This document shows, piece after piece, positions 583-60,718 of a stretch of 64,000 nucleotides of DNA. Both the position numbers and the translations under genes were made by a program. The DNA is from Thraustochytrium sp. TN22. Taxonomy: Eukaryota; Sar; Bigyra; Thraustochytrida; Thraustochytriidae. The stretch is taken from contig JABLUY010000125.1 in assembly GCA_013306675.1 (NCBI GenBank), positions 42,814 through 106,813 on the forward strand. The letters run 5' to 3'. The notes under the pieces are model-generated. The model searched no databases. It was not told the DNA's origin and worked only from the letters and a program-made list of their open reading frames with translations. Position 1 is the first letter of the stretch. Each line of letters opens with the position of its first letter.

Positions 583-2416
583 TCACTTGTCCTTCGCAGC
601 GTACGAACCGACTGGGCCTTCAGCGCCCGCGTCCGGGAGGGAGTCATAGCCCGCGGCGTAGCCGCCCACGTCGAGGCCAGGCGCCCCAAAGACATGCGAG
701 CCGGGCCCAAGGCCGGCGGAGTCATCGAGCATGTCATAGGCCGAGTTGGCGGCTTCCCCAAACTGGCCGCCGAGGCCAGGAGCGGACGGGGGCGCGTAGC
801 CCTCGTCCAGGTAGGTGCCGTACTGCACCGGGTGCAGAATCGGACCTCCCGGAGGAGCAAAGGGCATCATACCCGGATCGATGTCGGGCAAGACACCGTA
901 GCGACCAGGGTCGATGCCCCCGAGCGGACCGAGGCCGAGCGCCTGGTCGGCGAGCGAGGCCGGCAGCGCCTCGTAGCCGAGGTAGAGCGGGGCGAGGTTC
1001 TCGTCGCGCGCGTCATCGTTGGGGTCGCCTAGACTCTCGAGCGTGTCGTCGACCGCGAGTGGGTACGTGAGCCGGTCGTTATTCTCGTGAACCAGCGAGG
1101 CAATCCGCTTGTACACGAGGCCGCCAAGAATGAACCCACGCGAGGCGTCCGTGAAGATCTTGGACTGTAGCACACCCTTGTCAGCCGTGACATAGGCAAC
1201 GACAAGGCAGCCGTCCTGGCTCTGGCTGAAGCGAATGAGAAAGGTCCCTGGGGGCTTGTCCTCGAGCATGAGCTCCGCCTGCTCGTAGGTGAGAAAGCCG
1301 CGAAAAACGCGCGAGGGGCCAATGTCGTGAAGATCGGGCGCCGGCTGGCGCAGCTGCGTGCCGTGCGAGGCAACGAGCTCGGCGAAGGAACGGTAGGTGC
1401 GCTGGCCGCTGACAAAGACGCTCTCTTCCTCCTCGCTCGGGGCAAAGGCGCGTACGAGCGCGTGATTGACCACGCCTGTGTCAACATTAGCGTAGCTGAC
1501 GGCCCACGTGCAGACGGAGCTCTCGCTGAAGCGAACGAGAAAGGTGCCCGGCGGGTGTGGCATGAGCACGCAGCACGCCTCCTCGAGGGTCAACGCACCG
1601 GCGAACCACGCCGGGCTGTTGGTGGACGCCTTGAGCTGCACGAGCGCCACTCGCAGACCCGGCCCAAAGGAGAACAAGAGGTCGTCGAGCTGGCGTACAG
1701 TGACGGCCCTACGGTTCTTTGGGTCGGCCCGCGCGCGCAGCTCCTCGCGCAGCTCCGTGTCGCGCATGAGCTCACCGACCCTACCGTCCTCGTGCCGCTC
1801 GAGCCCGCGCGCAAAGGCGTCCCATGGCACGGCGTAGCGATTGCCAAAGTGGGCCGTCCACCAAGAGCGGCCGTCCTCGTCCTCGATGAGGTGGCCCACG
1901 GCCATCACGCCGCCGTCGGACGCCAGGCTGGCGGCCAGGTCGGTCGCAACCGCGCTGGCGTGTGCCGGATCTGCCGCCCTGCCGCCCTGCAGAGTGCGCA
2001 GGTGCGGCTGCAGCAGGTCGACGTGCGCGATGAGCTTGCGCTCGCAGCGCGTGAAGAAGAGCCGCAGTCGCGGGCCCTCGAGTGTCGTGGCCAGCGTCCT
2101 GTGCAGCACGCAGTGGTTCAGCTTGGCGCGCAGCGCCGACAGCAGCTCCAGCAGCACGAGCACCCAGCTCTGGAAGCCCGCGTCGCGCACAAAGGTCGTC
2201 ACGAAGCGCGGGTCGAAGACCGTCGCCAGCGCTGAGGCGCCCAGCGTCACCGCCACGCGCAGCCCGGCCACCTGCTCCTCCTGCCGGTGTGTGTCCAGGT
2301 CGCTCTCCACGTCGCGCGCAATCTCCGCGCACGCGCGCAGCAGCTGCAGGCACGTGCGCGCGTGCGGCGTCAGCTCCTCCTCCTCCTTGCCTTCGCCGCC
2401 GCGGCCTACCGCAGCA

Positions 2417-2448
<32 letters not shown>

Positions 2449-2514
2449 CGTCGGTGCCGTCGCCGCCGCTGCCGCGGGGGCTGCGGCTGTCTCGCGCGCC
2501 GACGCGGCCAGCAT
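583..2514 (-). CDS. Cbl-TKB-like protein with tandem SH2 domains
   Basis: Likely a phosphotyrosine-binding signalling adaptor of 643 residues. The frame is open further upstream to 3147, but that part is Arg-rich and GC-driven, so the ATG at 2514 was chosen. After a Thr/Ala-rich start (about residues 12-45) comes a predicted helical bundle (about 60-200). Next is a WWTAHFG...AVPWDAF segment (about 218-230), strongly reminiscent of the EF-hand part of the Cbl TKB domain. The first SH2 domain carries FLVRFSES (about residue 323). The second carries PPGTFLIRFSQSQ (about residue 415). Both keep the FLxRFS phosphotyrosine-binding Arg. The tail (490-643) is Gly/Pro/Tyr-rich with several isolated tyrosines. 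No RING finger, kinase or STAT DNA-binding segment is visible. The domain calls are strong for SH2 and moderate for TKB. Confidence 0.8.
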
Positions 2515-2749
2515 CGTCTCCTCCTCCTCCTCCTTCTCCTCCTCCTCCTCCTTCTTGCACTGCCTGCGGCCGCCCGTCCCGGTACTGCCGCGCGCGCGCG
2601 CTCTCCACGTCGCGCCCGCGCGCGTACGCGGGCCTCGCCGCCGCGGTTCTGCTCGCGTGCCGCGCCGCCGCTCTCTGCACGCTCCGCCGCGAGCGCTCCG
2701 CCGCCGCCGCGCCGCGCGCCGCGTGCCGCCGCGCCGCCGTGCGCAGCGC

Positions 2750-2783
<34 letters not shown>

Positions 2784-3934
2784 GCGCGCGAGTGGAGCGG
2801 CGTCGGGCGAGTGGCCGGAGGAGTTGCGGGCTTGGCGCCGCGCGCCGCCGCAGCAGGCTCCGTTCGACGCTTGTTCCGCGCACGCGGCGCCGCCGCCGCC
2901 TCCGACGCGCGGGCGGCCGCGGCGCCGGGCCGACGTCGGCGCGCCGCCGACGTCGCGCTCGAGGTCCGGCCCCCTGACCCGGCGGCGGTGCAGTGGTTGG
3001 GATGGGAAGGGATGGGATGCCGAGGCGAGGCGAGGCGAGGCGAGGCTGGGACGCCGCCGTGCGCGGGACCCTCCCTGCCGGCGCGGGGCGCCGCGAGGCT
3101 CGGAGAGGCCGCGGGCGGCGAGGAGCAGGCTCCAGCTCAGCTTGCACGGGGAGTTTGGTCGGGGTTTGCGTTGGCTGCGCTGCGCTGCGCTGCGCTGCGC
3201 TGAGGTGGCTCGGGTTTCTGTCTTGCTAGCTAGCTAGCTACTTAGCTGAGGAGAACAGCATCAACCTGCGCCGCGCGGGAGCGTCGTGCTCTAGCACAGC
3301 AGCGTGAAGACGAGCTGTTCGAAGTGCGTGTCCAACTTGCTGGCGGGCGGCCAATCGTCTGGTTGCTTGCTGCCTGCGGCGCTTGCCTGGCGGCTGTGCC
3401 TGCCTCTATGGCGTCGTTGTCACTCAGCTTCCGCGCGCTTTGGAGCGCAAGCCAGCGTACGTGCGCTGCTCAGGGCACACAATGGTGGGCGTGGCCAGGG
3501 GCGTGGCGCGAGAGGGCCGTGCTTGCCATGGCAGTGCCAGGCTCTGGCACGTGCAAGCCGCGGCCGTGCGCAGCGCAAGGCGCGCCGCGGTGCCGCCGCC
3601 GCTGCCGGCGCCCGGACCGCCGCGCTGCAGGTGGCGAAACGGCTTGCGATGCGTTCCGCCAACCGCCCGCGGTTTCAGGGCCCAGGCCGCGGCGTGCACA
3701 ACTTTTACAACTTTTACTTTACAAGGCCTGGCACTCACAAAAGTTCGAGGTGGCGTCCGAGTCCGCGCAGTCCGCGTAGCTCGGAGGCCCCGCGCAGCGG
3801 GCGCCCACGGGCTTGGAGGGGGGGCGGAGGAGAGAAGGGGCTTTGGCAGTGAGTCTCGCGCCCGTGTTCGTCGGGGGCGACCCGGAGGCAAGGCTTCACG
3901 AGGACTTGGAGAGCGACGGCGAAAGAGTGAGGCC
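2515..3934. other. Divergent intergenic region
   Basis: This 1.4 kb lies between the divergent SH2 gene (-) and glycosyltransferase (+) and should hold both promoters. Simple repeats seen: a CGAGG run at 3021-3045, a GCTGC run at about 3174-3202 and GCTAGCTAGCTAGCTA at 3225-3240. Long open frames in both directions are Arg/Ala/Pro-rich GC artefacts. Confidence 0.6.
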
Positions 3935-5488
3935 ATGGCGCCGCGGAGGGCCGCGCTCATGGTCGAGAGCAGCCGCAGCAACAGTCGCAGCGTAAGAGGA
4001 CGCGTGATGTTGCAGGTGGTGTTGTGTGTAGTGGGCGTCTGCGTGTTGTACTTGGCCAGAATAAGGACGTGGAGGGGCGGGGGCGGGAAGGAGCTGTGGC
4101 CCGGGGTGTCCATCGCGGGCACGACGTACAAAGAGGGCGCCGAGGAGGAGCTGCGCAGATATGAGCTGGGTGAGCTCGCGGAGGCCATAGCGTCTGAAAA
4201 GGCGCTGCAGAAGGCGTTGGGAAACGCCGCTTTTGCTTCCGTGGAAGAGCGATTGAAGAAGAAGGCCGGGAGGGCTCCGCGGACGAAAGGTCTCGCCACG
4301 GTCAAGGCGAGTGCGAACGCGGTCACCAGGACACCATCCCATCCGCTGGTGGATGGAAGGGGCGGAGCTGGTCAACTGCCCGAAGAAGGCGCCGCTCCGC
4401 TCCTGGATGACGAGTGGTGGCAGCGCTTTGCGGGGCACTTTGCAAAGGACCCCCCTCCGCTGGCGCTGGAAGCGAACCCGGTCTGCCGAGACCAGGATCA
4501 AGCGAGCGAAAGCTTGCACGTGGTGACGGCAGTGTCGGCCAACCACCTGTTGGAGGCTGCGACGATGCTGATGTCACTCCAGACGATGGCGAACCTGGCC
4601 CGGCAGTCGGCGCCCCTGAGGGTTGTGGTGCACGTCTTTTTCCTCAAAGACGATGCGGAGCCGCGCGACGTGGAGCAGGAGCTGCTCGGAATTTGTGGGC
4701 TCGAGATTTCGATCAAGCGCTATGATTGGCGGTGGCTCGGCTTTGGCGAGTCGAGACTGACGCCGGAGATCGAGGCGCAAATCATGGGTCTCTCCAACAG
4801 CTTGTGGAAGCCCGTGCTCATTCGCCTTGTGGCACGCAACGTGGGCCCGTGTCAGCACGTCCTCTGGTGTGACGCGTCGGTGCGCTTTCGAGCGCAGTTC
4901 GCACTGGAGCGTGTATGGCGGCAGTCGCACATCAACGGGCTGCTGGTTGATCAGGAGAGGTCCGACCTGATCGGGAAGACCACACACCCAACGACATTCT
5001 ACATTTTGTCGCAAATTACCAACGGAGCGGTGCCTTCCAATATCAGGAGCTTTATGAGCACTCGCGGCGTCGCTGCGACCAGCACGCTTTGGTACACGGG
5101 CAACGCGCGCGCCATGCGCCTCCTTGACACGTGGGCCAACTGCGCAGTCTCGATCAAGTGCATGGCTCCAGACGGCGCCTCTGGTTTTAGAGGCTCAGCC
5201 ATCAGCGAAGACTGTGTCAAGAGCGACAAAGGCACATGCCACCGCGGGGACCAGTCCGTGCTCGGCATCCTCACCTGGGTGTACGCCAAGGAGCTCCGCG
5301 ACGAGGGCGCCGTGGGCCGCTACGGCGCAAATGGACTGCTCTTCCCGACCTTCCGTGACCCGGAATCCAAGCATTCCTCCGTGACCTTTAACCGCGATAA
5401 GCAGGGCCGCAAACCGCAAAAGTGCCCGCCCGGGAGCTACACGCCTCGCCTCATAAACATCACGGACCCCATGCGGATCCTCCTGTAG
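3935..5488 (+). CDS. Putative type II membrane glycosyltransferase
   Basis: A 517-residue protein. The ATG at 3935 was chosen because the frame upstream has no convincing ATG and looks non-coding. Residues about 24-42 (MLQVVLCVVGVCVLYLA) follow a basic N-terminus and form a signal anchor, so the protein is probably a Golgi type II membrane protein. A stem region is followed by a globular domain starting at SLHVVTAVSANHLLEAA (about residue 190). It contains LWCDASVRF, which resembles the nucleotide-sugar/metal-binding Asp motif of several eukaryotic glycosyltransferase families (often seen as LWxDSSIRF). Several Cys residues in the C-terminal half (CHRGDQS, KCPPGS) may form disulfides. The exact family and sugar are not identifiable by eye. 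A partial relative lies at 73-198. Confidence 0.65.
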   Translation: MAPRRAALMVESSRSNSRSVRGRVMLQVVLCVVGVCVLYLARIRTWRGGGGKELWPGVSIAGTTYKEGAEEELRRYELGELAEAIASEKALQKALGNAAFASVEERLKKKAGRAPRTKGLATVKASANAVTRTPSHPLVDGRGGAGQLPEEGAAPLLDDEWWQRFAGHFAKDPPPLALEANPVCRDQDQASESLHVVTAVSANHLLEAATMLMSLQTMANLARQSAPLRVVVHVFFLKDDAEPRDVEQELLGICGLEISIKRYDWRWLGFGESRLTPEIEAQIMGLSNSLWKPVLIRLVARNVGPCQHVLWCDASVRFRAQFALERVWRQSHINGLLVDQERSDLIGKTTHPTTFYILSQITNGAVPSNIRSFMSTRGVAATSTLWYTGNARAMRLLDTWANCAVSIKCMAPDGASGFRGSAISEDCVKSDKGTCHRGDQSVLGILTWVYAKELRDEGAVGRYGANGLLFPTFRDPESKHSSVTFNRDKQGRKPQKCPPGSYTPRLINITDPMRILL

Positions 5489-6660: not shown

Positions 6661-9600
6661 ATGACGGCCGAGGAGAAGCCGCGCGTGCAGTTTGAGTGGA
6701 ACTCGGGTGACGCCGCCAAGCCCAAGCCGCAGACGGACGGCCCGCCGCGCCCCTGCTCTGATGCCGCGCGCAACGCCACCCCGAACCCGTACAACTACGA
6801 GGAGTTCGCCAAGCTCGAGCAGATCGCTTCGCTGCGCAAGAACGCCGACAAGCTCGACTGGTCCCAGGCGCCCGACACCTACCCGGAGAACTACCCGGCC
6901 TTCGTGCGCGCCCGCGACAGCGTGCGCACCTACATCGCCCAGCTCTTCATGGAGGAGATCGCCATGTACGACGGCGCCATGGGCACCATGATCCAGAACT
7001 ACGCCAAGGAGAACACGCTTGAGGAGGAGCAGTACCGCGGCGAGCGCTTCAAGGACTGGGAGTGCCAGGTCAAGGGCAACAACGACCTGCTGTCGCTGTC
7101 GCAGCCCGGCATCATCAAGAACATCCACAAGGCCTACCTTGACTCGGGCTCCCAGCTCATCGGCACCAACACGTTCTCGTCCACCACCATCGCGCAGGCC
7201 GACTACAAGATGGAAGACCTCGCGTACGAGCTCAACTACGCCGGCGCGCGCCTTGCTCGTGAGGCGTGTGACGAGGCCACCGCCGCGGACCCGACGCGGC
7301 CCCGCTTCGTGGTGGGCGCTCTGGGCCCGACCAACCGCACGGGCTCTATCTCGCCCGACGTGGAGGACCCGAGCGCGCGCAACGTGACCTTTGACGAGCT
7401 CGTGGAGGCGTACTTTGAGCAGGTGGTCGGTCTCATGGACGGTGGCGCCGACATCCTCATGGTGGAGACCATCTTCGACACCCTGAACGCCAAGGCGGCG
7501 CTCTTCGCCATCACCGAGTACCTCGAGCTTACCGGCCTGGATGTGCCTGTCTTTATCTCCGGCACGCTGGTGGACCAGTCCGGCCGCACGCTGTCCGGCC
7601 AGACCGGCGAGGCGTTCTACGCCTCGGTGCGCCATGCCAAGCCCATGTGCGTGGGCCTGAACTGCGCGCTGGGCGCGCAGCAGATGGCGCCGTTCCTGGA
7701 GCGCCTGAGCAAGGTGGTGGAGTGCTTCGTCCACGTGTACGCCAACGCGGGTCTGCCGAACGCCATGGGCGGCTACGATGACACGCCGGCGGACATGGCG
7801 TCGTACAACAAGCCGTTCTTCGAGAACAAGTGGGTGAACATGGTGGGCGGCTGCTGCGGCAGCACGCCGCCGCACATCGCGGCCCTGGCGCAGGCCATCA
7901 AGTCGAACGGCTACAAGCCGCGCGAGCTGCCGGCGCTGGGTGTGCCCAAGATGTGGCTGTCCGGCCTGGAGGACCTTGTGGTGGATGACGTGCACAACCA
8001 GCACGGCATGCCGTTTCTGAACGTGGGCGAACGCTGCAACATCGCCGGCTCGCGCAAGTTCAAGCGGCTGATCATGGCCGGCAACTACGGCGAGTGCATG
8101 GACATTGCCAAGGCGCAGGTCGCTGACGGCGCGCACGTGATCGACATCAACGTTGACGACGGCATGCTGGACGGCATGGACGCGATGCAGAAGTTCGTCA
8201 AGATCGCCATTACCGAGCCGGAGGTCTCCAAGGTGCCCTTCATGCTGGACGCCTCAAGCTTCGACATCGTTCTGGCCGGCCTCAAGTGGTGCCAGGGCAA
8301 GCCGATCGTGAACAGCATCTCGCTCAAGGTCGGCGAGGCCAAGTTCAAGGAGCAGGCGACGCTGCTGCGCAAGCACGGCGCTGCCGTCGTGGTGATGGCG
8401 TTCGACGAGGAGGGCCAGGCCGCGACCGAGGACGAGAAGGTGCGCATCTGCAAGCGTTCGTACGACATTCTGGTGAACGAGGTGCGGTTCCCGCCGGAGG
8501 ACATTGTGTTCGACCCGAACGTGCTGACGATCGGCACGGGCATGGAGGAGCACAACGCGTACGGCGTGGACTTTATTCGCGCGACGCGGCGCATCAAGGA
8601 GGTGTGCCCGTACGTGAAGATCAGCGGCGGTATCTCGAACCTGAGCTTTGGTTTCCGCGGCGTGTCGAAGATCCGCGAGTCCATCCACGCGGTGTTCCTG
8701 GAGCACGCCATTCTAGAGTCTGGCATGGACATGGGCATCGTGAACGCGGGCGAGCTACTCTGCGCCGACCAGGTCGAGCCGGACCTGCGCGAGCTGTGCG
8801 AGGACCTGGTGCTGAACAAGATCCCGGAGGCAACCGAGCACATGCTGGAGGCCACTGCGTACGAGCGATCGGTGCTCGACGCGAAGAAGCAAGGCTTGCC
8901 GCCCCCGAAGCGGCCGCGCATCAAGGTGGTCAACAAGCCTCGCGTGGAGTTCGAGTGGAACTCGGGTGACGCCGCCAAGCCCAAGCCGCAGACAGACGGC
9001 CCGCCGCGCCCCTGCTCTGATGCCGCGCGCAACGCCACCCCGAACCCGTACAACTACGAGGAGTTCGCCAAGCTCGAGCAGATCGCTTCGCTGCGCAAGA
9101 ACGCCGACAAGCTCGACTGGTCCCAGGCGCCCGACACCTACCCGGAGAACTACCCGGCCTTCGTGCGCGCCCGCGACAGCGTGCGCACCTACATCGCCCA
9201 GCTCTTCATGGAGGAGATCGCCATGTACGACGGCGCCATGGGCACCATGATCCAGAACTACGCCAAGGAGAACACGCTTGAGGAGGAGCAGTACCGCGGC
9301 GAGCGCTTCAAGGACTGGGAGTGCCAGGTCAAGGGCAACAACGACCTGCTGTCGCTGTCGCAGCCCGACATCATCAAGAACATCCACAAGGCCTACCTCG
9401 ACTCGGGCTCCCAACTTATTGGCACAAACACGTTCTCGTCCACCACCATCGCGCAGGCCGACTACAAGATGGAAGACCTCGCGTACGAGCTCAACTACGC
9501 CGGCGCGCGCCTTGCTCGCGAGGCGTGTGACGAGGCCACCGCCGCGGACCCGACGCGGCCCCGCTTCGTGGTGGGCGCTCTGGGCCCGACCAACCGCACG

Positions 9601-12600
9601 GGCTCCATCTCGCCCGACGTGGAGGATCCGAGCGCGCGCAACGTGACCTTTGACGAGCTCGTGGAGGCGTACTTCGAGCAGGTGGTCGGTCTCATGGACG
9701 GTGGCGCCGACATCCTCATGGTGGAGACCATCTTCGACACCCTGAACGCCAAGGCGGCGCTCTTCGCCATCACCGAGTACCTCGAGCTCACGGGCCTGGA
9801 TGTGCCGGTCTTCATCTCCGGCACGCTGGTGGACCAGTCTGGCCGCACGCTGTCCGGCCAGACCGGCGAGGCGTTCTACGCCTCGGTGCGCCACGCCAAG
9901 CCCATGTGCGTGGGCCTGAACTGCGCGCTGGGCGCGCAGCAGATGGCGCCGTTCCTGGAGCGCCTGAGCAAGGTGGTGGAGTGCTTCGTCCACGTGTACG
10001 CCAACGCGGGTCTGCCGAACGCCATGGGCGGCTACGATGACACGCCGGCGGACATGGCGTCGTACAACAAGCCGTTCTTCGAGAACAAGTGGGTGAACAT
10101 GGTGGGCGGCTGCTGCGGCAGCACGCCGCCGCACATCGCGGCGCTGGCGCAGGCCATCAAGTCGAACGGCTACAAGCCGCGCGAGCTGCCGGCGCTGGGT
10201 GTGCCCAAGATGTGGCTGTCCGGCCTGGAGGACCTTGTGGTGGATGACGTGCACAACCAGCACGGCATGCCGTTCCTGAACGTGGGCGAACGCTGCAACA
10301 TCGCCGGCTCGCGCAAGTTCAAGCGGCTGATCATGGCCGGCAACTACGGCGAGTGCATGGACATTGCCAAGGCGCAGGTCACTGACGGCGCGCACGTGAT
10401 CGATATCAACGTCGACGACGGCATGCTGGACGGCATGGATGCGATGCAGAAGTTTGTCAAGATCGCCATTACCGAGCCGGAGGTCTCCAAGGTGCCCTTC
10501 ATGCTGGACGCCTCGAGCTTCGACATCGTTCTGGCCGGCCTCAAGTGGTGCCAGGGCAAGCCGATCGTGAACAGCATCTCGCTCAAGGTCGGCGAGGCCA
10601 AGTTCAAGGAGCAGGCGACGCTGCTGCGCAAGCACGGCGCTGCCGTCGTGGTGATGGCGTTCGACGAGGAGGGCCAGGCCGCGACCGAGGACGAGAAGGT
10701 GCGCATCTGCAAGCGTTCGTACGACATTCTGGTGAACGAGGTGCGGTTCCCGCCGGAGGACATCGTGTTCGACCCGAACGTGCTGACGATCGGCACGGGC
10801 ATGGAGGAGCACAACGCGTACGGCGTGGACTTTATTCGCGCGACGCGGCGCATCAAGGAGGTGTGCCCGTACGTGAAGATCAGCGGCGGTATCTCGAACC
10901 TGAGCTTTGGTTTCCGCGGCGTGTCGAAGATCCGCGAGTCCATCCACGCGGTGTTTCTGGAGCACGCCATTCTAGAGTCCGGCATGGACATGGGCATCGT
11001 GAACGCGGGCGAGCTGCTCTGTGCGGACGATGTGGAGCCGGACCTGCGCGAGCTGTGCGAGGACCTGGTGCTGAACAAGATCCCGGAGGCAACCGAGCAC
11101 ATGCTGGAGGCCACTGCGTACGAGCGATCGGTGCTTGACGCCAAGAAGAAGAACCTGCCCCCGCCTCGCAAGCCTCGAATCAAGGTCACGAAGAAGCCGC
11201 GCAAGCAGTTCGAGTGGAACTCAGGTGACGCCGCCAAGCCCAAGCCGCAGACGGACGGCCCGCCGCGCCCTTGCTCTGATGCCGCGCGCAACGCCACCCC
11301 GAACCCGTACAACTACGAGGAGTTCGCCAAGCTCGAGCAGATCGCTTCGCTGCGCAAGAACGCCGACAAGCTCAACTGGGCCCAGGCGCCCGACACCTAC
11401 CCGGAGAGCTACCCCGCCTTTGTGCGCGCCCGCGACAGCGTGCGCACCTACATCGCCCGGCTCTTCACGGAGGAGATCGCCATGTACGACGGCGCCATGG
11501 GCACCATGATCCAGAACTACGCCAAGGAGAACACGCTTGAGGAGGAGCAGTACCGCGGCGAGCGCTTCAAGGACTGGGAGTGCCAGGTCAAGGGCAACAA
11601 CGACCTGCTGTCACTGTCGCAGCCCGACATCATCAAGAACATCCACAAGGCCTACCTCGACTCGGGCTCCCAGCTCATCGGCACCAACACGTTCTCGTCC
11701 ACCACCATCGCGCAGGCCGACTACAAGATGGAAGACCTCGCGTACGAGCTCAACTACGCCGGCGCGCGCCTTGCTCGCGAGGCGTGTGACGAGGCCACCG
11801 CCGCGGACCCGACGCGGCCCCGCTTCGTGGTGGGCGCTCTGGGCCCGACCAACCGCACGGGCTCCATCTCGCCCGACGTGGAGGATCCGAGCGCGCGCAA
11901 CGTGACCTTTGACGAGCTCGTGGAGGCGTACTTCGAGCAGGTGGTCGGTCTCATGGACGGTGGCGCCGACATCCTCATGGTGGAGACCATCTTCGACACC
12001 CTGAACGCCAAGGCGGCGCTCTTCGCCATCACCGAGTACCTCGAGCTCACGGGCCTGGATGTGCCGGTCTTCATCTCCGGCACGCTGGTGGACCAGTCTG
12101 GCCGCACGCTGTCCGGCCAGACCGGCGAGGCGTTCTACGCCTCGGTGCGCCATGCCAAGCCCATGTGCGTGGGCCTGAACTGCGCGCTGGGCGCGCAGCA
12201 GATGGCGCCGTTCCTGGAGCGCCTGAGCAAGGTGGTGGAGTGCTTCGTCCACGTGTACGCCAACGCGGGTCTGCCGAACGCCATGGGCGGCTACGATGAC
12301 ACGCCGGCGGACATGGCGTCGTACAACAAGCCGTTCTTCGAGAACAAGTGGGTGAACATGGTGGGCGGCTGCTGCGGCAGCACGCCGCCGCACATCGCGG
12401 CCCTGGCGCAGGCCATCAAGTCGAACGGCTACAAGCCGCGCGAGCTGCCGGCGCTGGGTGTGCCCAAGATGTGGCTCTCGGGCCTCTCGGATCTCATTGT
12501 GGATGACGTGCACAACCAGCTCGGCATGCCGTTTCTGAACGTGGGCGAACGCTGCAACATCGCCGGCTCGCGCAAGTTCAAGCGGCTGATCATGGCCGGC

Positions 12601-15249
12601 AACTACGGCGAGTGCATGGACATTGCCAAGGCGCAGGTCGCTGACGGCGCGCACGTGATCGACATCAACGTTGACGACGGCATGCTGGACGGCATGGACG
12701 CGATGCAGAAGTTCGTCAAGATCGCCATTACCGAGCCGGAGGTCTCCAAGGTGCCCTTCATGCTGGACGCCTCAAGCTTCGACATCGTTCTGGCCGGCCT
12801 CAAGTGGTGCCAGGGCAAGCCGATCGTGAACAGCATCTCGCTCAAGGTCGGCGAGGCCAAGTTCAAGGAGCAGGCGACGCTGCTGCGCAAGCACGGCGCT
12901 GCCGTCGTGGTGATGGCGTTCGACGAGGAGGGCCAGGCCGCGACCGAGGACGAGAAGGTGCGCATCTGCAAGCGTTCGTACGACATTCTGGTGAACGAGG
13001 TGCGGTTCCCGCCGGAGGACATCGTGTTCGACCCGAACGTGCTGACGATCGGCACGGGCATGGAGGAGCACAACGCGTAACNNNNNNNNNNNNNNNNNNN
13101 NNNNNNNNNNNNNNNNNNNNNNNNNNNNNNNNNNNNNNNNNNNNNNNNNNNNNNNNNNNNNNNNNNNNNNNNNNNNNNNNNNNNNNNNNNNNNNNNNNNN
13201 NNNNNNNNNNNNTTCCTGGAGCACGCCATTCTAGAGTCTGGCATGGACATGGGCATCGTGAACGCGGGTGAGCTGCTGGGCGCGGACGAGGTGGAGCCGG
13301 ACCTGCGCGAGCTGTGCGAGGACCTGGTGCTGAACAAGACCCCGAACGCGACCGAGCGCATGCTGGAGGCGACGCAGCGTGAGCGTGAGCGTCTGAAGCA
13401 GCTCAAGGAGGGCGGCGGCGCGGCCGCGGCCGCGGCCAAGCCGACGGACTGGCGCGCCAAGCCGGTCAGGGAGCGGCTCTCGCACGCGCTGGTGAATGGC
13501 ATCACCAAGCACATTGACGAGGACGTCGAGGAGGCGCGCCTCGCCTCGGACAAGCCGCTCGAGGTGATCGAGGGTCCGCTCATGGACGGCATGGGCATTG
13601 TCGGCGACCTCTTCGGCGCCGGTAAGATGTTCCTCCCGCAGGTCATCAAATCGGCGCGCGTCATGAAGAAGGCCGTCGCGTACCTGGAGCCCTTCATCGA
13701 GGCAGAGAAGGATGAGAACCTTCGCAAGATGGGCATCAACCCGGAAGACGCGGACCCGGACGAGGTCTCGCAGGGCACCTTTTTGATCGCCACCGTGGCC
13801 GGCGACGTGCACGACATCGGCAAGAACATCACGGCCGTCATCCTCGGCTGCAACGCCGTGCGCGTCATCGACATGGGTGTCATGGTTGCCTGCGACGACA
13901 TCGTCAAGGCGGCCAAGGAGCACAAGGTCGACGCCGTGGGTCTGTCGGGCCTGATCACGCCCAGTCTCGACGAGATGGTCACGGTTGCCAAGGAGATGAA
14001 GAAGGCCGGTCTTGACGTGCCGCTCCTGATCGGTGGCGCCACGACCAGCAAGCGCCACACGGCCATCAAGATCGCACCGCACTACGCCACGCCCGAGCAC
14101 CCGGTCATCCACGTGCTGGACGCCAGCCGCGCCGTCACAGTTGTGCAGTCGCTCCTGTCCGAGGACGACAAGCCGGACTTCGTTGCGGAGATTCAGGAGG
14201 AGTACGTGGACATCGTCGAGGACTACTACGCCGGCCTCGAGGAGCGCAAGTTCTTTTCGCTCGACGTCGCCAAGGAGAAGCGCTTCAAGATCGACTTTGA
14301 CGAGCAGCCGCCCGCGCCCGCGCCCAGCGCCGGCACTGGCGCGCGCAAGGCGCCGACCTGCCCGATCGAGGAGGTCATCCCGTACATTGACTGGGGCCCC
14401 TTCTTCCACACCTTTGAGCTTCGCGGCCGCTACCCGAACCGCGGCTACCCGAAGATCTTCAACGACAAGACTGTGGGTGCCGAGGCGAAGAAGCTCTTTG
14501 ACGAGGCTCAGGCCATGCTGCAAAAGATCATGGCCGACAAGTCGCTTTGGCTCGAGGGCACCTACGGCATTTTCCCGGCCAACCGCAGCGACGACGGGGA
14601 GGACGTCGTCATCTACGAGGACGATACCCGCACCGTCGAGCGCGGCAAGCTCTGCATGCTGCGTCAGCAGGCGCAGACCGAGGCTGCCAACATGTTCAGC
14701 CAGGCCGACTTTATTGCCCCCTCTGGCCATGATGACTTCATCGGTGGCATGGCCGTCGCCTGCCACGGCGTCGAGGAGCTCGCCAACAAGTACAAGGCCG
14801 ACAACGACGACTTCAACGGAATCCTCGTGCAGGCCATTGGCGACCGCCTCGTGGAGGCCTACGCTGAGAAGCTGCACCGCGACATCCGCGTCGAGCTTTG
14901 GGGCTACGCCAAGGCCGAGGCCCTCAAGCACGAGGACCTCCTCAAGATCAAGTACGACGGCATCCGCCCGGCGCCCGGCTACCCGTCGCAGCCTGACCAC
15001 ACCGAAAAGGCTTTCCTCTGGGACCTTATCGAGGCCGAGAGCAATGCCCATATGACGCTCACCTCTAGCTACAGCATGGTACCCGCCTCGAGTGTTTCTG
15101 CGCTCATCTTCGCGCACCCCTCGGCGGAGTACTTTGCCGTCGGCCAGATCCAGAAGGACCAGGTCCAAAGCTACGCCGACCGCAAGGGCGAGTCCGTTGA
15201 GTACGTCGAGAAGTGGCTTGGTTCTAACCTCGCCTACGACAGCGCCTAA
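6661..15249 (+). CDS. metH: Methionine synthase with three tandem Hcy-folate modules
   Basis: Cobalamin-dependent methionine synthase (5-methyltetrahydrofolate plus homocysteine to methionine). One frame runs from the ATG at 6661 to the TAA at 15247-15249, about 2,862 codons against about 1,230 in E. coli MetH. Three modules of 753 codons each carry a roughly 90-residue N-terminal extension, a homocysteine domain ([12 protein letters not shown], zinc Cys in GLNCALG and GGCCGS) and a pterin domain ([20 protein letters not shown]). Then come one cap/B12-binding domain ([10 protein letters not shown] with the cobalt-ligand His, [20 protein letters not shown]) and one AdoMet-binding activation domain ([16 protein letters not shown] near the end). 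A TAA at 13078-13080 touches a 131-N gap (13082-13212). The frame is conserved across the gap, so the stop is probably a base error. Whether triplication is real or partly an assembly product needs long reads. Confidence 0.85.
6691..8949 (+). repeat. MetH module copy 1 (2259 bp)
   Basis: First of three tandem in-frame repeats, from [14 protein letters not shown] to the linker ending [20 protein letters not shown]. It encodes the extension, homocysteine domain and pterin domain. The exact period to copy 2 is 2259 bases (753 codons). Confidence 0.9.
8950..11208 (+). repeat. MetH module copy 2 (2259 bp)
   Basis: Second repeat, nearly identical to copy 1, with scattered mostly silent changes and a distinct linker ([19 protein letters not shown]). 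All three zinc Cys of the homocysteine domain and the ERCNIAGSR pterin motif are kept. Confidence 0.9.
11209..13467 (+). repeat. MetH module copy 3, with assembly gap
   Basis: Third repeat. It carries a few private replacements ([35 protein letters not shown]) and contains the N gap near its end. After the gap it diverges ([22 protein letters not shown]) and runs through an Ala-rich linker into the unique cap/B12 half. The repeat end is approximate because of that divergence. Confidence 0.85.
13082..13212. other. Assembly gap (131 N)
   Basis: Unresolved bases inside the third MetH module. In copy 1 the distance between the same flanking bases (8561 and 8695) is 133 bases; here bases 13080-13212 also make 133. 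The gap length therefore fits the missing repeat sequence exactly and keeps the reading frame. Confidence 0.95.
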
Positions 15250-35799: not shown

Positions 35800-38700
35800 T
35801 TATGTATCGCGAGACAGGGATGCCACCTGCGAAGCCGACGCCTTCGTCAGCGGGTGCCCCGCGCCCAGCTTGGACCGACGCGTCGCCAGCGCCTGCGCCG
35901 CGAGCGACGCATCGTGCGTCACCTCGGCGACGTAGTACTGCGAGGCGGCCGTCTCTGGGTGGTCCGAACCCAAGCACGCCTCACGGATGGCCAGCGAACG
36001 CTGCAAAGACGCAACAGCATCCCCATCGCGACCGAGACCCAGCAACGCGCGCCCCTGGGCAAGGTACGCGAAGCCAAACTGCGGGTGCTGCGCGTCCGCA
36101 CCGAGGGTCTCCATGAGGATCTCCAGGGCACTCGCCGCGAACGGGAGCGCCTCTCCGAAGCGGGCGAGGTCGCAGAGAGTCAGCGCGATGTTGCGGCGCG
36201 TAATCGCAACGAACTCGTGCGTCGGCCCGAGCTGCTCCACATATCCCTCCAGCACTTCCTTGAACTGCGCCAGCGCAGCCTCGTACTGGCCCATGTCCCG
36301 CAGCAGGCCGGCGATGTTGGACTTCGTCGCCAGCACGGACGGATGCGTCGGCCCGAGCTGCTCCACGTCTTGCTCTAGCACCTCGCTGAACTGCGCCAGC
36401 GCCGCCTCGTACTGGCCCATGTCCTGCAGCAAATTGGCGATGTTGTGCTTCGTCGTCAGCACGTCAGGGTGCGTCGGCCCGAGCTGCTCCACGCGTTGCT
36501 CCAGCACCTCGTTGAACTGCGCCAGCGCCGCCTCGTACTGGCCCATGGTCTGCACCACGCCGGCGATGTTGTGCTTTGTCGTCAGCACGGACGGGTGCGT
36601 CGGCCCGAGCTGCTCCGCGCGTTGCTCCAGCACCTCGTTGAACTGCGCCAGCGCCACCTCGTACTGGCCCATGGCCTGCACCACGCTGGCGATGTTGTGC
36701 TTCGTCGCCAGCACGGACGGGTGCGTCGGCCCGAGCTGCTCCACGTGTTGCTCCAGCACCTCGTTGAACTGCGCCAGCGCCGCCTCGTACTGGCCCATGG
36801 CCTGCAGCACGCAGGCGAAGTTGTGCTTTGTCGCCAGCACGGACGGGTGCGTCGGCCCGAGCTGCTCCACGCGTTGCTCCAGCACCTCGTTGAACTGCGC
36901 CAGCGCCGCCTCGTACTGGCCCATGGCCTGCAACACGCAGGCGAAGTTGTGCTTTGTCGCCAGCACGGACGGGTGCGTCGGCCCGAGCTGCTCCACGCGT
37001 TGCTCCAGCACCTCGTTGAACTGCGCCAGCGCCGCCTCGTACTGGCCCATGGCCTGCAACACGCAGGCGAAGTTGTGCTTTGTCGCCAGCACGGACGGGT
37101 GCGTCGGCCCGAGCTGCTCCACGCGTTGCTCCAGCACCTCGTTGAACTGCGCCAGCGCCGCCTCGTACTGGCCCATGGCCTGCAACACGCAGGCGAAGTT
37201 GTGCTTTGTCGCCAGCACGGACGGGTGCGTCGGCCCGAGCTGCTCCACGCGTTGCTCCAGCACCTCGTTGAACTGCGCCAGCGCCGCCTCGTACTGGCCC
37301 ATGGCCTGCAACACGCAGGCGAAGTTGTGCTTTGTCGCCAGCACGGACGGGTGCGTCGGCCCGAGCTGCTCCACGCGTTGCTCCAGCACCTCGTTGAACT
37401 GCGCCAGCGCCGCCTCGTACTGGCCCATGGCCTGCAACACGCAGGCGAAGTTGTGCTTTGTCGCCAGCACGGACGGGTGCGTCGGCCCGAGCTGCTCCAC
37501 GCGTTGCTCCAGCACCTCGTTGAACTGCACCAGCGCCGCCTCGTACTGGCCCATGGCCTGCAGCACGCCGGCGATGTTGTGCTTCGTCGCCAGCACGGAA
37601 GGGTGCGTCGGCCCGAGCTGCTCCACGCTTGGCTCCAGCACCTCGTTGAACTGCGCCAGCGCCGCCTCGTACTGGCCCATGGACCACAGCAGGCCGGCGA
37701 AGTTGTGCTTCGTCAGCACGGACGGGTGCGTCGGCCCGAGCTGCTCCACTTCGTGCTCCAGCACCTCGTTGAACTGCGCCAGCGCCGCCTCGAACTGGCC
37801 CATTTTCCGCAGCAGGCCGGCGATGTTGGCCTTCGTCGCCAGGACGTCAGGGTGGCTGGGTCTTTGCTTGACCAATGTGATCTCGAGCGACTGCCGGTAG
37901 AGGTCGAGGGCGTCCTCGTAGCGACCTTGGTCTTCCAGCAGCCAGGCGACGTCGTGCATGAGAGATGCCACTCCTAAAGTCTTCCCTTCACTCTGAACGC
38001 GAGAGGCCACGATGCGCCGCGCGGTTTGTGCGAGCCAGACGCGCAGCTGCTCGAGGACGACGCCGTTGAGGTGGTGAAAGCCGCCGGGCAGGGCTTGGAC
38101 GGCCTCCGTGATCATCTTGCGATCGGCGTCGGCGTGGCAGTCGGCACTGGCGAGGTCGAACTTGGAGAGCGCCTTGGTGACAGCGTCGGGAGTCTCATCC
38201 TCCATGAGCTGAACAAAGCGCTGGTCCTGGCCAGGCGCGAAGATGAGCTCGAGGGCCTTGCCGCAGTTGACGGCGCCGTAGACCTCCCAGACGCACCACA
38301 TGCGCGTGAGGGGCGTGGGGTTGTCCCACTTGTCGAAGAAGATGAGACGTTCGTCGAAGCGCTCGATGGCGGCGTGGAGGCCGCGCGTGAGGAGGTCGTC
38401 GCGCTGCTGGTAAATCTCGGGCGAGAGGTCTGCGTCCTTGTTCGCGAGCTTGGGCTGGTTGGCGCAGAAGATGTCGAGCCAGACGAAGGTGGTGCGGAGG
38501 TTCCTGCGCTGGTTTGTGTAGTGCGCTACGAGGGCTTGGACGAGGTCGCCGAAGCTGCACATGCGCGCTTGGCTGACGAAGGCGCCGTCGAAGGGCTTGC
38601 CGACGAGGTCGTCGGCCTCCTCGAGCAGGACGTCGAGGTAGAAGAGGCTGTCGCGAAAGGTGTCGGCGAGCACGAGGTGTTCGCAGACATCTTCGATGGT

Positions 38701-39150
38701 CCAGTCGGCCCTGTCCTTGGGCGTGGCTTGGTGGGGTGAGATGAGGACTTGACCGTCGACGTAGGCGACGTTACCCTTGAGCTTGCCATCGGGGTGGGGT
38801 CGCCGTGCCGCGGCGGTGCAGCCAGCGTTGGCAGTACCGGTCTTGTTCCCCCTGTCGTCAGTAGCGTCGACGTCCTCCGTGAGCACGGCGAGTTCGACGC
38901 CGTGCGCGCGTTCGCCGGCGAGGGTGCCTTGCCAGATGGCCTGCAGCGCGGCGACGCTGAGTCCGCGGTACCACACGATGTCGTTGCTCAAGTCGTCCAC
39001 CTGGTCCTCGGGCTGCTGCTGCTGCTGCAGCTGCTGCACGGCCTGCAGGCTCGCCCTGGCGGCGCTGGATGCGCGCCGCGCCACCGCGCCGGTCGCGCCG
39101 CTGGCGCGCCGCGCGAGGCGGCCGAGGCTCTTTCGCGCGCTGCGCCGCAT
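35800..39150 (-). CDS. TIR-like domain protein with near-identical TPR array
   Basis: A 1,116-residue protein from the ATG at 39150. After a basic N-terminus, residues about 45-330 form a domain with VDGQVLISPHQA, TFVWLDIFCANQP, LIFFDKWDNPTPL and TRMWCVWEVYGA. The WLDxFCxNQ and RxWCVWE signatures recur in large protist families and resemble a TIR-like fold (inference). Residues about 400-1080 are kinesin-light-chain-type tetratricopeptide repeats of 42 residues, roughly sixteen in a row. Six consecutive repeats carry the identical KHNFACVLQAMGQYEAALAQ core (126-base period, 36800-37450), with more diverged ones at both ends. No NB-ARC or NACHT ATPase is visible between the domains. It is likely a cytosolic protein-recognition or signalling protein; an immune-receptor-like role is speculation. 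The frame is intact although neighbours are broken. Confidence 0.75.
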   Translation of the reverse strand: MRRSARKSLGRLARRASGATGAVARRASSAARASLQAVQQLQQQQQPEDQVDDLSNDIVWYRGLSVAALQAIWQGTLAGERAHGVELAVLTEDVDATDDRGNKTGTANAGCTAAARRPHPDGKLKGNVAYVDGQVLISPHQATPKDRADWTIEDVCEHLVLADTFRDSLFYLDVLLEEADDLVGKPFDGAFVSQARMCSFGDLVQALVAHYTNQRRNLRTTFVWLDIFCANQPKLANKDADLSPEIYQQRDDLLTRGLHAAIERFDERLIFFDKWDNPTPLTRMWCVWEVYGAVNCGKALELIFAPGQDQRFVQLMEDETPDAVTKALSKFDLASADCHADADRKMITEAVQALPGGFHHLNGVVLEQLRVWLAQTARRIVASRVQSEGKTLGVASLMHDVAWLLEDQGRYEDALDLYRQSLEITLVKQRPSHPDVLATKANIAGLLRKMGQFEAALAQFNEVLEHEVEQLGPTHPSVLTKHNFAGLLWSMGQYEAALAQFNEVLEPSVEQLGPTHPSVLATKHNIAGVLQAMGQYEAALVQFNEVLEQRVEQLGPTHPSVLATKHNFACVLQAMGQYEAALAQFNEVLEQRVEQLGPTHPSVLATKHNFACVLQAMGQYEAALAQFNEVLEQRVEQLGPTHPSVLATKHNFACVLQAMGQYEAALAQFNEVLEQRVEQLGPTHPSVLATKHNFACVLQAMGQYEAALAQFNEVLEQRVEQLGPTHPSVLATKHNFACVLQAMGQYEAALAQFNEVLEQRVEQLGPTHPSVLATKHNFACVLQAMGQYEAALAQFNEVLEQHVEQLGPTHPSVLATKHNIASVVQAMGQYEVALAQFNEVLEQRAEQLGPTHPSVLTTKHNIAGVVQTMGQYEAALAQFNEVLEQRVEQLGPTHPDVLTTKHNIANLLQDMGQYEAALAQFSEVLEQDVEQLGPTHPSVLATKSNIAGLLRDMGQYEAALAQFKEVLEGYVEQLGPTHEFVAITRRNIALTLCDLARFGEALPFAASALEILMETLGADAQHPQFGFAYLAQGRALLGLGRDGDAVASLQRSLAIREACLGSDHPETAASQYYVAEVTHDASLAAQALATRRSKLGAGHPLTKASASQVASLSRDT
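36200..37860 (-). repeat. 126-bp tandem TPR-coding repeats
   Basis: Direct repeats of 126 bases coding for 42-residue TPR units. The copies beginning near 36800, 36926, 37052, 37178, 37304 and 37430 are almost identical at DNA level; outer copies diverge. The pattern indicates recent unit duplication or gene conversion. Confidence 0.9.

Positions 39151-59392: not shown

Positions 59393-60718
<1,326 letters not shown>

What the first reader, a model, noticed from the sequence alone, without database searches (positions are those of the whole stretch)
6661..15249. Methionine synthase with triplicated substrate modules
Seen directly: three tandem 753-codon modules, each with intact homocysteine zinc Cys (GLNCALG, GGCCGS) and pterin motif (ERCNIAGSR), followed by a single B12 and activation half. 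Known MetH has one of each. If real, three homocysteine/folate modules would share one cobalamin domain, raising questions about module access, local substrate concentration or dosage.
Basis: partly seen in the sequence, partly recalled or inferred. Interest (0 to 1): 0.88.

Follow-up and report, generated by a model that had tools for sequence, protein, structure and literature searches.

The report
Methionine synthase with repeated substrate modules
A protist's vitamin B12-dependent methionine synthase carries three near-identical copies of its substrate-binding half but only one B12-carrying half, and database searches show the same kind of layout, with two to four copies, in many algae and related protists.

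Summary
Window 6661-15249 encodes a MetH with three tandem 753-codon modules (N-extension, Hcy barrel, Fol barrel), catalytic motifs intact in each, then one Cap-Cob-Act half. An assembly error is unlikely: the two junctions differ (dS about 0.4), one Act domain was found in the genome, and differences between copies are patchy.

The layout is not unique. Of 248 MetH records examined (searches favoured long proteins), 159 have 2-4 full Hcy domains: thraustochytrids, diatoms, a pelagophyte, green algae, dinoflagellates. None has two full Cob or Act domains; none of 80 prokaryotic loci has tandem modules. Modules usually resemble each other more than any other protein's (78 of 96). An inter-module linker motif (95 of 99 versus 1 of 162 Fol-Cap linkers) suggests, in stramenopiles, an old duplication kept uniform by gene conversion. 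The listings of ten paper searches showed none naming this.

Best function guess (untested): several substrate modules serve one cobalamin, raising turnover per B12. A neutral ratchet is the main rival. New variant of a known kind.

The parts
6661..8919 (+). Module 1: N-extension, Hcy barrel (6952-7971), Fol barrel (7972-8796) and the start of linker 1
8899..8919 (+). Inter-module linker 1 core (PPPKRPR)
   Evidence: linker listing; same motif type in 95 of 99 stramenopile/other inter-module linkers
8920..11178 (+). Module 2: N-extension, Hcy barrel (9211-10230), Fol barrel (10231-11055)
11158..11178 (+). Inter-module linker 2 core (PPPRKPR), distinct from linker 1
11179..13437 (+). Module 3: N-extension, Hcy barrel (11470-12486), Fol barrel (12490-13314, with gap) and the different Fol-Cap linker
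13082..13212 (+). 131-N gap inside the Fol barrel of module 3, with a TAA at its 5' edge; unread sequence
13438..14217 (+). Single Cap + cobalamin-binding (Cob) region
   Evidence: PF02607 and PF02310
14341..15249 (+). Single reactivation (Act) domain and stop codon
   Evidence: PF02965; only one found in the genome

Best explanation
Shown: this is a cobalamin-dependent methionine synthase by sequence, whose N-half (N-extension, Hcy barrel, Fol barrel) is present three times in tandem while the cobalamin half is single. It belongs to a widespread class of MetH with 2-4 such modules. Inferred from sequence: the duplication is old in stramenopiles, and the modules are kept nearly identical in most lineages by gene conversion, with purifying selection on the copies. 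Inferred, not tested: all modules are catalytically live. The single Cob domain takes methyl from any folate-loaded Fol barrel and gives it to any homocysteine-loaded Hcy barrel. Several modules per cofactor then shorten the wait for substrate and the lifetime of oxidisable Co(I), so turnover per scarce B12 rises.
For: Architecture and motifs. Of 248 records, 159 have 2 or more full Hcy domains and 0 have two full Cob or two full Act domains, so only the substrate half multiplies. Of 412 modules that passed my length rule, 409 keep the Cys motifs and GERxN; of all 428 Hcy domains of 250 aa or more, 421 keep both Cys motifs. In the window's barrels dN/dS between copies is about 0.02-0.14. Private differences come in patches: 58 sites, 18 runs against 39.1 expected, 0 of 20000 shuffles as low. 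dS is 0.02-0.08 in the core but 0.19-0.68 at the module ends, where synonymous sites are few (12 and about 30). Modules are more alike within a protein than to any other protein in 78 of 96 proteins. In 21 proteins chosen for a tree, each protein's modules form one clade: 23 groups need 22 changes, the minimum. The linker motif P-x-[KR]-P-[RK] is in 95 of 99 inter-module and 1 of 162 Fol-Cap linkers. Two multi-module records are MMETSP transcripts (P0007, P0053). No MetE was found in the genome. From passages of PMC10567725: Hcy and Fol move as one rigid body, the Fol-Cap linker is mobile, and Co(I) is oxidised about once per 2000 turnovers.
Against: There are no kinetics, and nothing shows that Cob can reach module 1. 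Gene conversion alone can keep redundant modules alike. Single-module relatives exist (oomycetes, Pinguiococcus, some diatom records), so extra modules are not required. The ancestry test on module C-ends favours an old duplication in stramenopiles (65 of 88) but not in greens (26 of 73). 18 of 96 proteins fail the within-above-between test, 7 of them without a near-identical partner record to explain it. Some modules lack catalytic motifs: 7 of 428 Hcy domains of 250 aa or more and the first Fol of P0083. The linker motif was widened after I had seen the linkers: a narrower pattern had matched 54 of 137 inter-module and 0 of 185 Fol-Cap linkers over all groups. The genome has five stand-alone homocysteine methyltransferase domains, so MetH may not be the only route to methionine. 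As recalled, Chlamydomonas reinhardtii has METE and yet has a multi-module METH record (P0096), so the layout is not confined to B12 auxotrophs.
Confidence: 0.5

Rival explanations
1. Neutral ratchet: tandem module duplication is easy (a 2.2-kb in-frame unit bounded by permissive linkers), copy number drifts by unequal crossing-over, and conversion keeps copies alike. The extra modules fold and may react but give no advantage.
For: Copy number is labile between close relatives: window 3 and Hondaea 2; Volvox africanus 3 and V. reticuliferus 2; Chlorella sorokiniana 3 and C. vulgaris 2. Conversion patches are seen. Another tandem array lies in the same window, 13 x 126 bp at 93% matches. Some first modules in greens have diverged (P0083, P0086, P0091).
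Against: Motif retention in 421 of 428 Hcy domains of 250 aa or more and 409 of 412 modules that passed the length rule; dN/dS of 0.02-0.14 in the window's barrels; no second full Cob or Act in 248 records; no tandem modules in the 80 prokaryotic loci sampled.
Confidence: 0.3
2. Only the module next to Cob works with it in cis. Distal modules serve another role: docking or oligomer scaffold, folate or homocysteine holding, or serving a neighbouring chain's Cob in trans.
For: Linkers between modules are conserved in stramenopile-type proteins and differ from the Fol-Cap linker. The AlphaFold model of Fol1-linker-Hcy2-Fol2 gives the linker and N-extension block-mean pLDDT 77-95, so they look ordered, not floppy, which could limit reach.
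Against: Catalytic motifs are kept in nearly all distal modules, which are usually homogenised with the proximal one. A pure scaffold would not need zinc cysteines.
Confidence: 0.15
3. Assembly artefact: collapsed or expanded repeats, alleles, or two genes joined.
For: A 131-N gap with an edge stop lies in module 3; the nearest relative, Hondaea, has two modules.
Against: The two junctions differ strongly (C-ends of modules 1 and 2 dS 0.45, N-ends of modules 2 and 3 dS 0.40, on few sites), too much for alleles. One Act domain found in the genome. Copies carry private patches. Three-module MetH also appears in independent records: P0001 (1.38-Mb contig), Chrysophaeum P0003, greens, dinoflagellates.
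Confidence: 0.05

Closest known systems
Human methionine synthase MTR (PDB 4CCZ, 9SSP and related entries) and bacterial MetH (8SSC, 8G3H, 9CBP)
   Same: Module 1 aligns along its whole Hcy-Fol length (query 91-733 on 4CCZ, E 6e-234). Same zinc, pterin, Cap, Cob and Act domains in the same order.
   Different: One Hcy-Fol pair instead of three; no N-extension repeated per module; no inter-module linker. Which species each entry is from is recalled or from a passage of PMC13376404.
Hondaea fermentalgiana MetH (P0004, order Thraustochytrida) and Mucochytrium quahogii MetH (P0007)
   Same: Same module, N-extension and linker type; the window pairs with Hondaea at 100% local support on the Cob-Act tree.
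   Different: Two modules instead of three.
Three- and four-module MetH of Chrysophaeum taylorii, Chlamydomonas incerta, Volvox, Myrmecia, Polarella, Haematococcus lacustris and Bryopsis sp.
   Same: Tandem Hcy-Fol modules with one Cob-Act half; nearly identical modules within a protein in most.
   Different: Different N-extensions and linkers in greens and dinoflagellates, so possibly separate origins; up to four modules.

Membership tests
Cobalamin-dependent methionine synthase (MetH) | Hcy barrel with three zinc cysteines | tested here: met
   PF02574 x3; GLNCALG and GGCCGS x3
Cobalamin-dependent methionine synthase (MetH) | Methyltetrahydrofolate-binding Fol barrel | tested here: met
   PF00809 x3; [10 protein letters not shown] x3. 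About 44 residues of Fol3 lie in the N gap
Cobalamin-dependent methionine synthase (MetH) | Cap and Cob domains with the DxHxxG base-off cobalamin motif (motif recalled) | tested here: met
   PF02607, PF02310; DxHxxG once
Cobalamin-dependent methionine synthase (MetH) | C-terminal SAM-binding reactivation domain | tested here: met
   PF02965 E 1.5e-104; RPAPGYP once
Cobalamin-dependent methionine synthase (MetH) | One of each domain, as in characterised enzymes | tested here: not met
   Three Hcy-Fol pairs. I treat this as the usual layout rather than as a defining feature, because 159 of 248 homologue records share the departure
Cobalamin-dependent methionine synthase (MetH) | Methionine synthase activity | not testable with these tools
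   No biochemistry available
Concerted evolution by gene conversion | Copies more alike within than between species, with mosaic patches | tested here: met
   78 of 96 proteins; one module clade in each of 21 chosen proteins; in the window, runs 18 vs 39.1, 0 of 20000. DNA mosaics were tested in the window only
Concerted evolution by gene conversion | Duplication older than the species splits, seen in unconverted flanks | tested here: inconclusive
   Stramenopile-type linker motif 95/99 vs 1/162 and 65 of 88 C-ends support it; greens 26 of 73 do not

The most novel reading that the evidence does not exclude
Algae and their kin run a multi-site methionine synthase: one tethered cobalamin shuttles among two to four equivalent substrate modules, so that methionine output per B12 molecule is raised. 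It would be a B12-sparing enzyme design, kept by gene conversion, and overlooked because assemblies and gene predictors can collapse or truncate the repeats.
Probability: 0.35. Interest if true: 0.85.

Novelty: new variant of a known kind. Interest (0 to 1): 0.68.

Why it matters
B12 limits growth of many algae, and MetH is the main reason they need it (established knowledge). If each B12 serves several substrate modules, the enzyme cost and B12 quota of phytoplankton are not those of E. coli or human MetH, and models built on one-module kinetics would be wrong for them. It also gives a natural series (1, 2, 3, 4 modules) for asking how one swinging cofactor domain serves several active sites. 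In practice, single-module MetH records in databases should be re-checked: by my rule 31 of 195 records with a complete Cob-Act half begin inside the remains of an upstream module (at least one of the 31, P0162, looks like a false call).

Tried and rejected
Assembly artefact: weighed and set low because the junctions differ at dS about 0.4, one Act domain was found in the genome, and other records show the same layout.

Recent independent duplication in each lineage: fits the near-identical modules, but not the inter-module linker motif shared by thraustochytrids and diatoms (95 of 99) or the high dS at the window's module ends. For greens it is not excluded (26 of 73).

Bacterial origin of the layout: none of 80 prokaryotic loci had tandem modules. 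One (L031) had a second, divergent Hcy match on the other strand; one (L021) showed two Cob matches that are adjoining pieces of one domain.

B12 auxotrophy as the cause: MetE was not found in this genome, but five stand-alone homocysteine methyltransferase domains are present, and the layout also occurs in a species with METE (recalled for Chlamydomonas).

Structure search of the model against the PDB was not obtained; the machine was busy each time. I have no coordinates or PAE, so the placing of one module against the next is not known.

Exceptions (18 of 96): 11 have a near-identical partner among the records (P0009, P0010, P0012, P0013, P0025, P0026, P0053, P0056, P0057, P0059, P0096). 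Seven are real exceptions with more divergent modules (P0021, P0036, P0042, P0049, P0072, P0083, P0091). None of the seven was in the tree.

Limits of the sample: could only return proteins of about 1180-3750 aa, of about 1170-3710 and of about 1510-4800, so single-module greens could not appear. Records are not species; several are near-copies (such as P0212-P0220). The 412 modules passed a length rule; pieces dropped by it include some without the motifs (P0077, P0080, P0089, P0090, P0093, P0095, P0100, P0101, P0239, P0244).

Full report
Observation. The window lies in a 37.9-Mb, 453-contig genome. Its neighbours include ORFs with TAF1-like (DUF3591 plus bromodomain), TPX2 and nucleoporin TPR/MLP domains, so it is nuclear DNA of a eukaryote. 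At 6661-15249 (+) there are three direct copies of 2259 nt in exact register, each an N-extension, an Hcy barrel and a Fol barrel, followed by one Cap-Cob-Act half. The catalytic motif strings occur three times in the modules and once in the C-half. One flaw was not in the finding: 131 N at 13082-13212 inside Fol3, with a TAA touching the gap. The register across the gap is exact, so I take the stop as a contig-edge error, without proof. The assembly therefore shows three modules, one of them partly unread.

Is it real? Module ends and junctions have diverged far more than cores: between modules 1 and 2, dS is 0.36 and 0.45 at the two ends (only 12 and 29 synonymous sites) but 0.02-0.07 in the body. 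Two alleles of a two-module gene would not be expected to differ so. Within the body, 58 private differences fall in patches (18 runs against 39.1 expected, 0 of 20000 shuffles as low; thinned set of 39 sites 13 against 26.8, 0 of 20000). That is the mark of gene conversion between old copies. Only one Act domain was found in the genome.

Is it unique? No. A search with the three-module part, one with the Cob-Act half of the Hondaea enzyme and one with a Chlamydomonas three-module enzyme listed 120 proteins each. Together with the window's own this makes 248 distinct records. Of these, 137 have two full Hcy domains, 20 three, 2 four, 86 one and 3 none; 0 have two full Cob or two full Act domains. 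favour long proteins; could not return single-module greens at all. In the list from the C-half query alone, 40 of 120 have two or more. Named holders include the thraustochytrids Hondaea and Mucochytrium, the diatoms Nitzschia inconspicua and Epithemia, the pelagophyte Chrysophaeum (three), many green algae including Mesostigma and Chlorokybus (two; names read from record prefixes, recalled), Chlamydomonas and Volvox (three; V. reticuliferus two), Haematococcus and Bryopsis (four), and the dinoflagellates Polarella and Prorocentrum (three, partial records). Two records (P0007, P0053) come from MMETSP transcriptomes, so two-module mRNAs exist. Of 80 prokaryotic MetH loci, 0 have tandem modules.

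Single-module records need care. Of 195 records with one complete Cob-Act half, 109 have two or more modules, 43 look truly single, 31 begin inside the remains of an upstream module by my rule (P0162 probably wrongly), and 12 cannot be judged. Such starts can come from cut contigs or from gene models. Oomycete enzymes look truly single: they lack the N-extension.

Evolution. Modules within a protein are usually 95-100% identical, while the nearest other protein is mostly 80-93%: 78 of 96 proteins satisfy 'all within above all between'; of the 18 others, 11 have a near-identical partner record and 7 are real exceptions. In a 54-row module tree of 21 chosen multi-module proteins and two single ones, each protein's modules form one clade (support for P0007 only 81). 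Yet the linkers tell of older copies. In stramenopile-type proteins the linker between modules carries P-x-[KR]-P-[RK] in 95 of 99 cases and the Fol-Cap linker in 1 of 162; thraustochytrids and diatoms share it. I widened this motif after seeing the linkers; a narrower one had matched 54 of 137 and 0 of 185 over all groups. Module C-ends give the same answer in 65 of 88 stramenopile-type proteins and 2 of 3 dinoflagellates, but in only 26 of 73 green ones, where the matter stays open; a first-module residue (LN[RK]R, 38 of 73, against 1 of 73 at the last) hints at position-specific descent there too. Groups were assigned by me from names or closeness to named records. On the Cob-Act tree (FastTree, 98 rows) the window is sister to Hondaea (100%), and greens plus dinoflagellates (40 of 40 multi, but sampled by a search that left out short proteins) are parted from stramenopiles, so two or more origins are possible.

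Selection. 409 of 412 modules that passed the length rule keep the zinc and pterin motifs, and 421 of 428 Hcy domains of 250 aa or more keep both Cys motifs. In the window's barrels dN/dS is about 0.02-0.14 for the three pairs. Both are what live enzymes show, though conversion can help.

Structure. AlphaFold2 on Fol1-linker-Hcy2-Fol2 (window 7972-11055, 1028 aa, 45 rows) gave mean pLDDT 87.3 and pTM 0.75. The linker and N-extension have block means of 77-95, with one 20-residue helix and several short ones, so they are probably ordered rather than loose. Relative module placing is not known.

Mechanism. From passages of PMC10567725 and PMC13376404: Hcy and Fol form one rigid body, the C-half is joined by a flexible linker, Cob must visit the sites in turn, and Co(I) is oxidised about once per 2000 turnovers. 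With several modules per Cob, a loaded Fol or Hcy site is more often at hand. I infer higher turnover per B12 and less inactivation. This is untested. No MetE was found in the genome (controls ring in 10 and 9 of 14; six-frame search without introns), so MetH matters here, but five stand-alone homocysteine methyltransferase domains exist.

In print? The listings of ten searches of the open PMC library (titles and starts of abstracts of at most 20 papers each, of up to 1,044 hits) showed no paper naming repeated Hcy-Fol modules. The passages I saw of PMC4523565, PMC11439496 and PMC7027972 do not mention it. I read no paper whole. Subscription papers, supplements and preprints were not searched.

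Noticed in passing
window 36217-37846: A tandem array of 13 copies of a 126-bp unit, 93% matches, inside a TPR-repeat protein ORF (35800-39150, -): another homogenised repeat in the same window.
   Followed up: no
window 59596-59766: A perfect run of 57 GCA triplets inside an ORF (59393-60718, +).
   Followed up: no
proteins: By my rule 31 of 195 MetH records with a complete Cob-Act half start inside the remains of an upstream module (P0162 probably a false call), so public records under-count modules.
   Followed up: partly
G000 contigs C42, C407, C199, C425, C151: Five stand-alone homocysteine S-methyltransferase (PF02574) domains in the window's genome besides MetH, with no MetE found.
   Followed up: no
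P0123 and P0124: Two records begin with an inter-module-like linker; they may be truncated multi-module MetH from another lineage. Organism not established here.
   Followed up: no
P0091, P0083, P0086 (greens): Module 1 has diverged (80-87% to the others) while modules 2 and 3 stay 94-99.5% alike; P0083 module 1 lacks GERxN. Possible escape of the first module from conversion.
   Followed up: no
L031: A Gemmatimonadetes MAG has a second, divergent Hcy methyltransferase match next to metH on the opposite strand.
   Followed up: no
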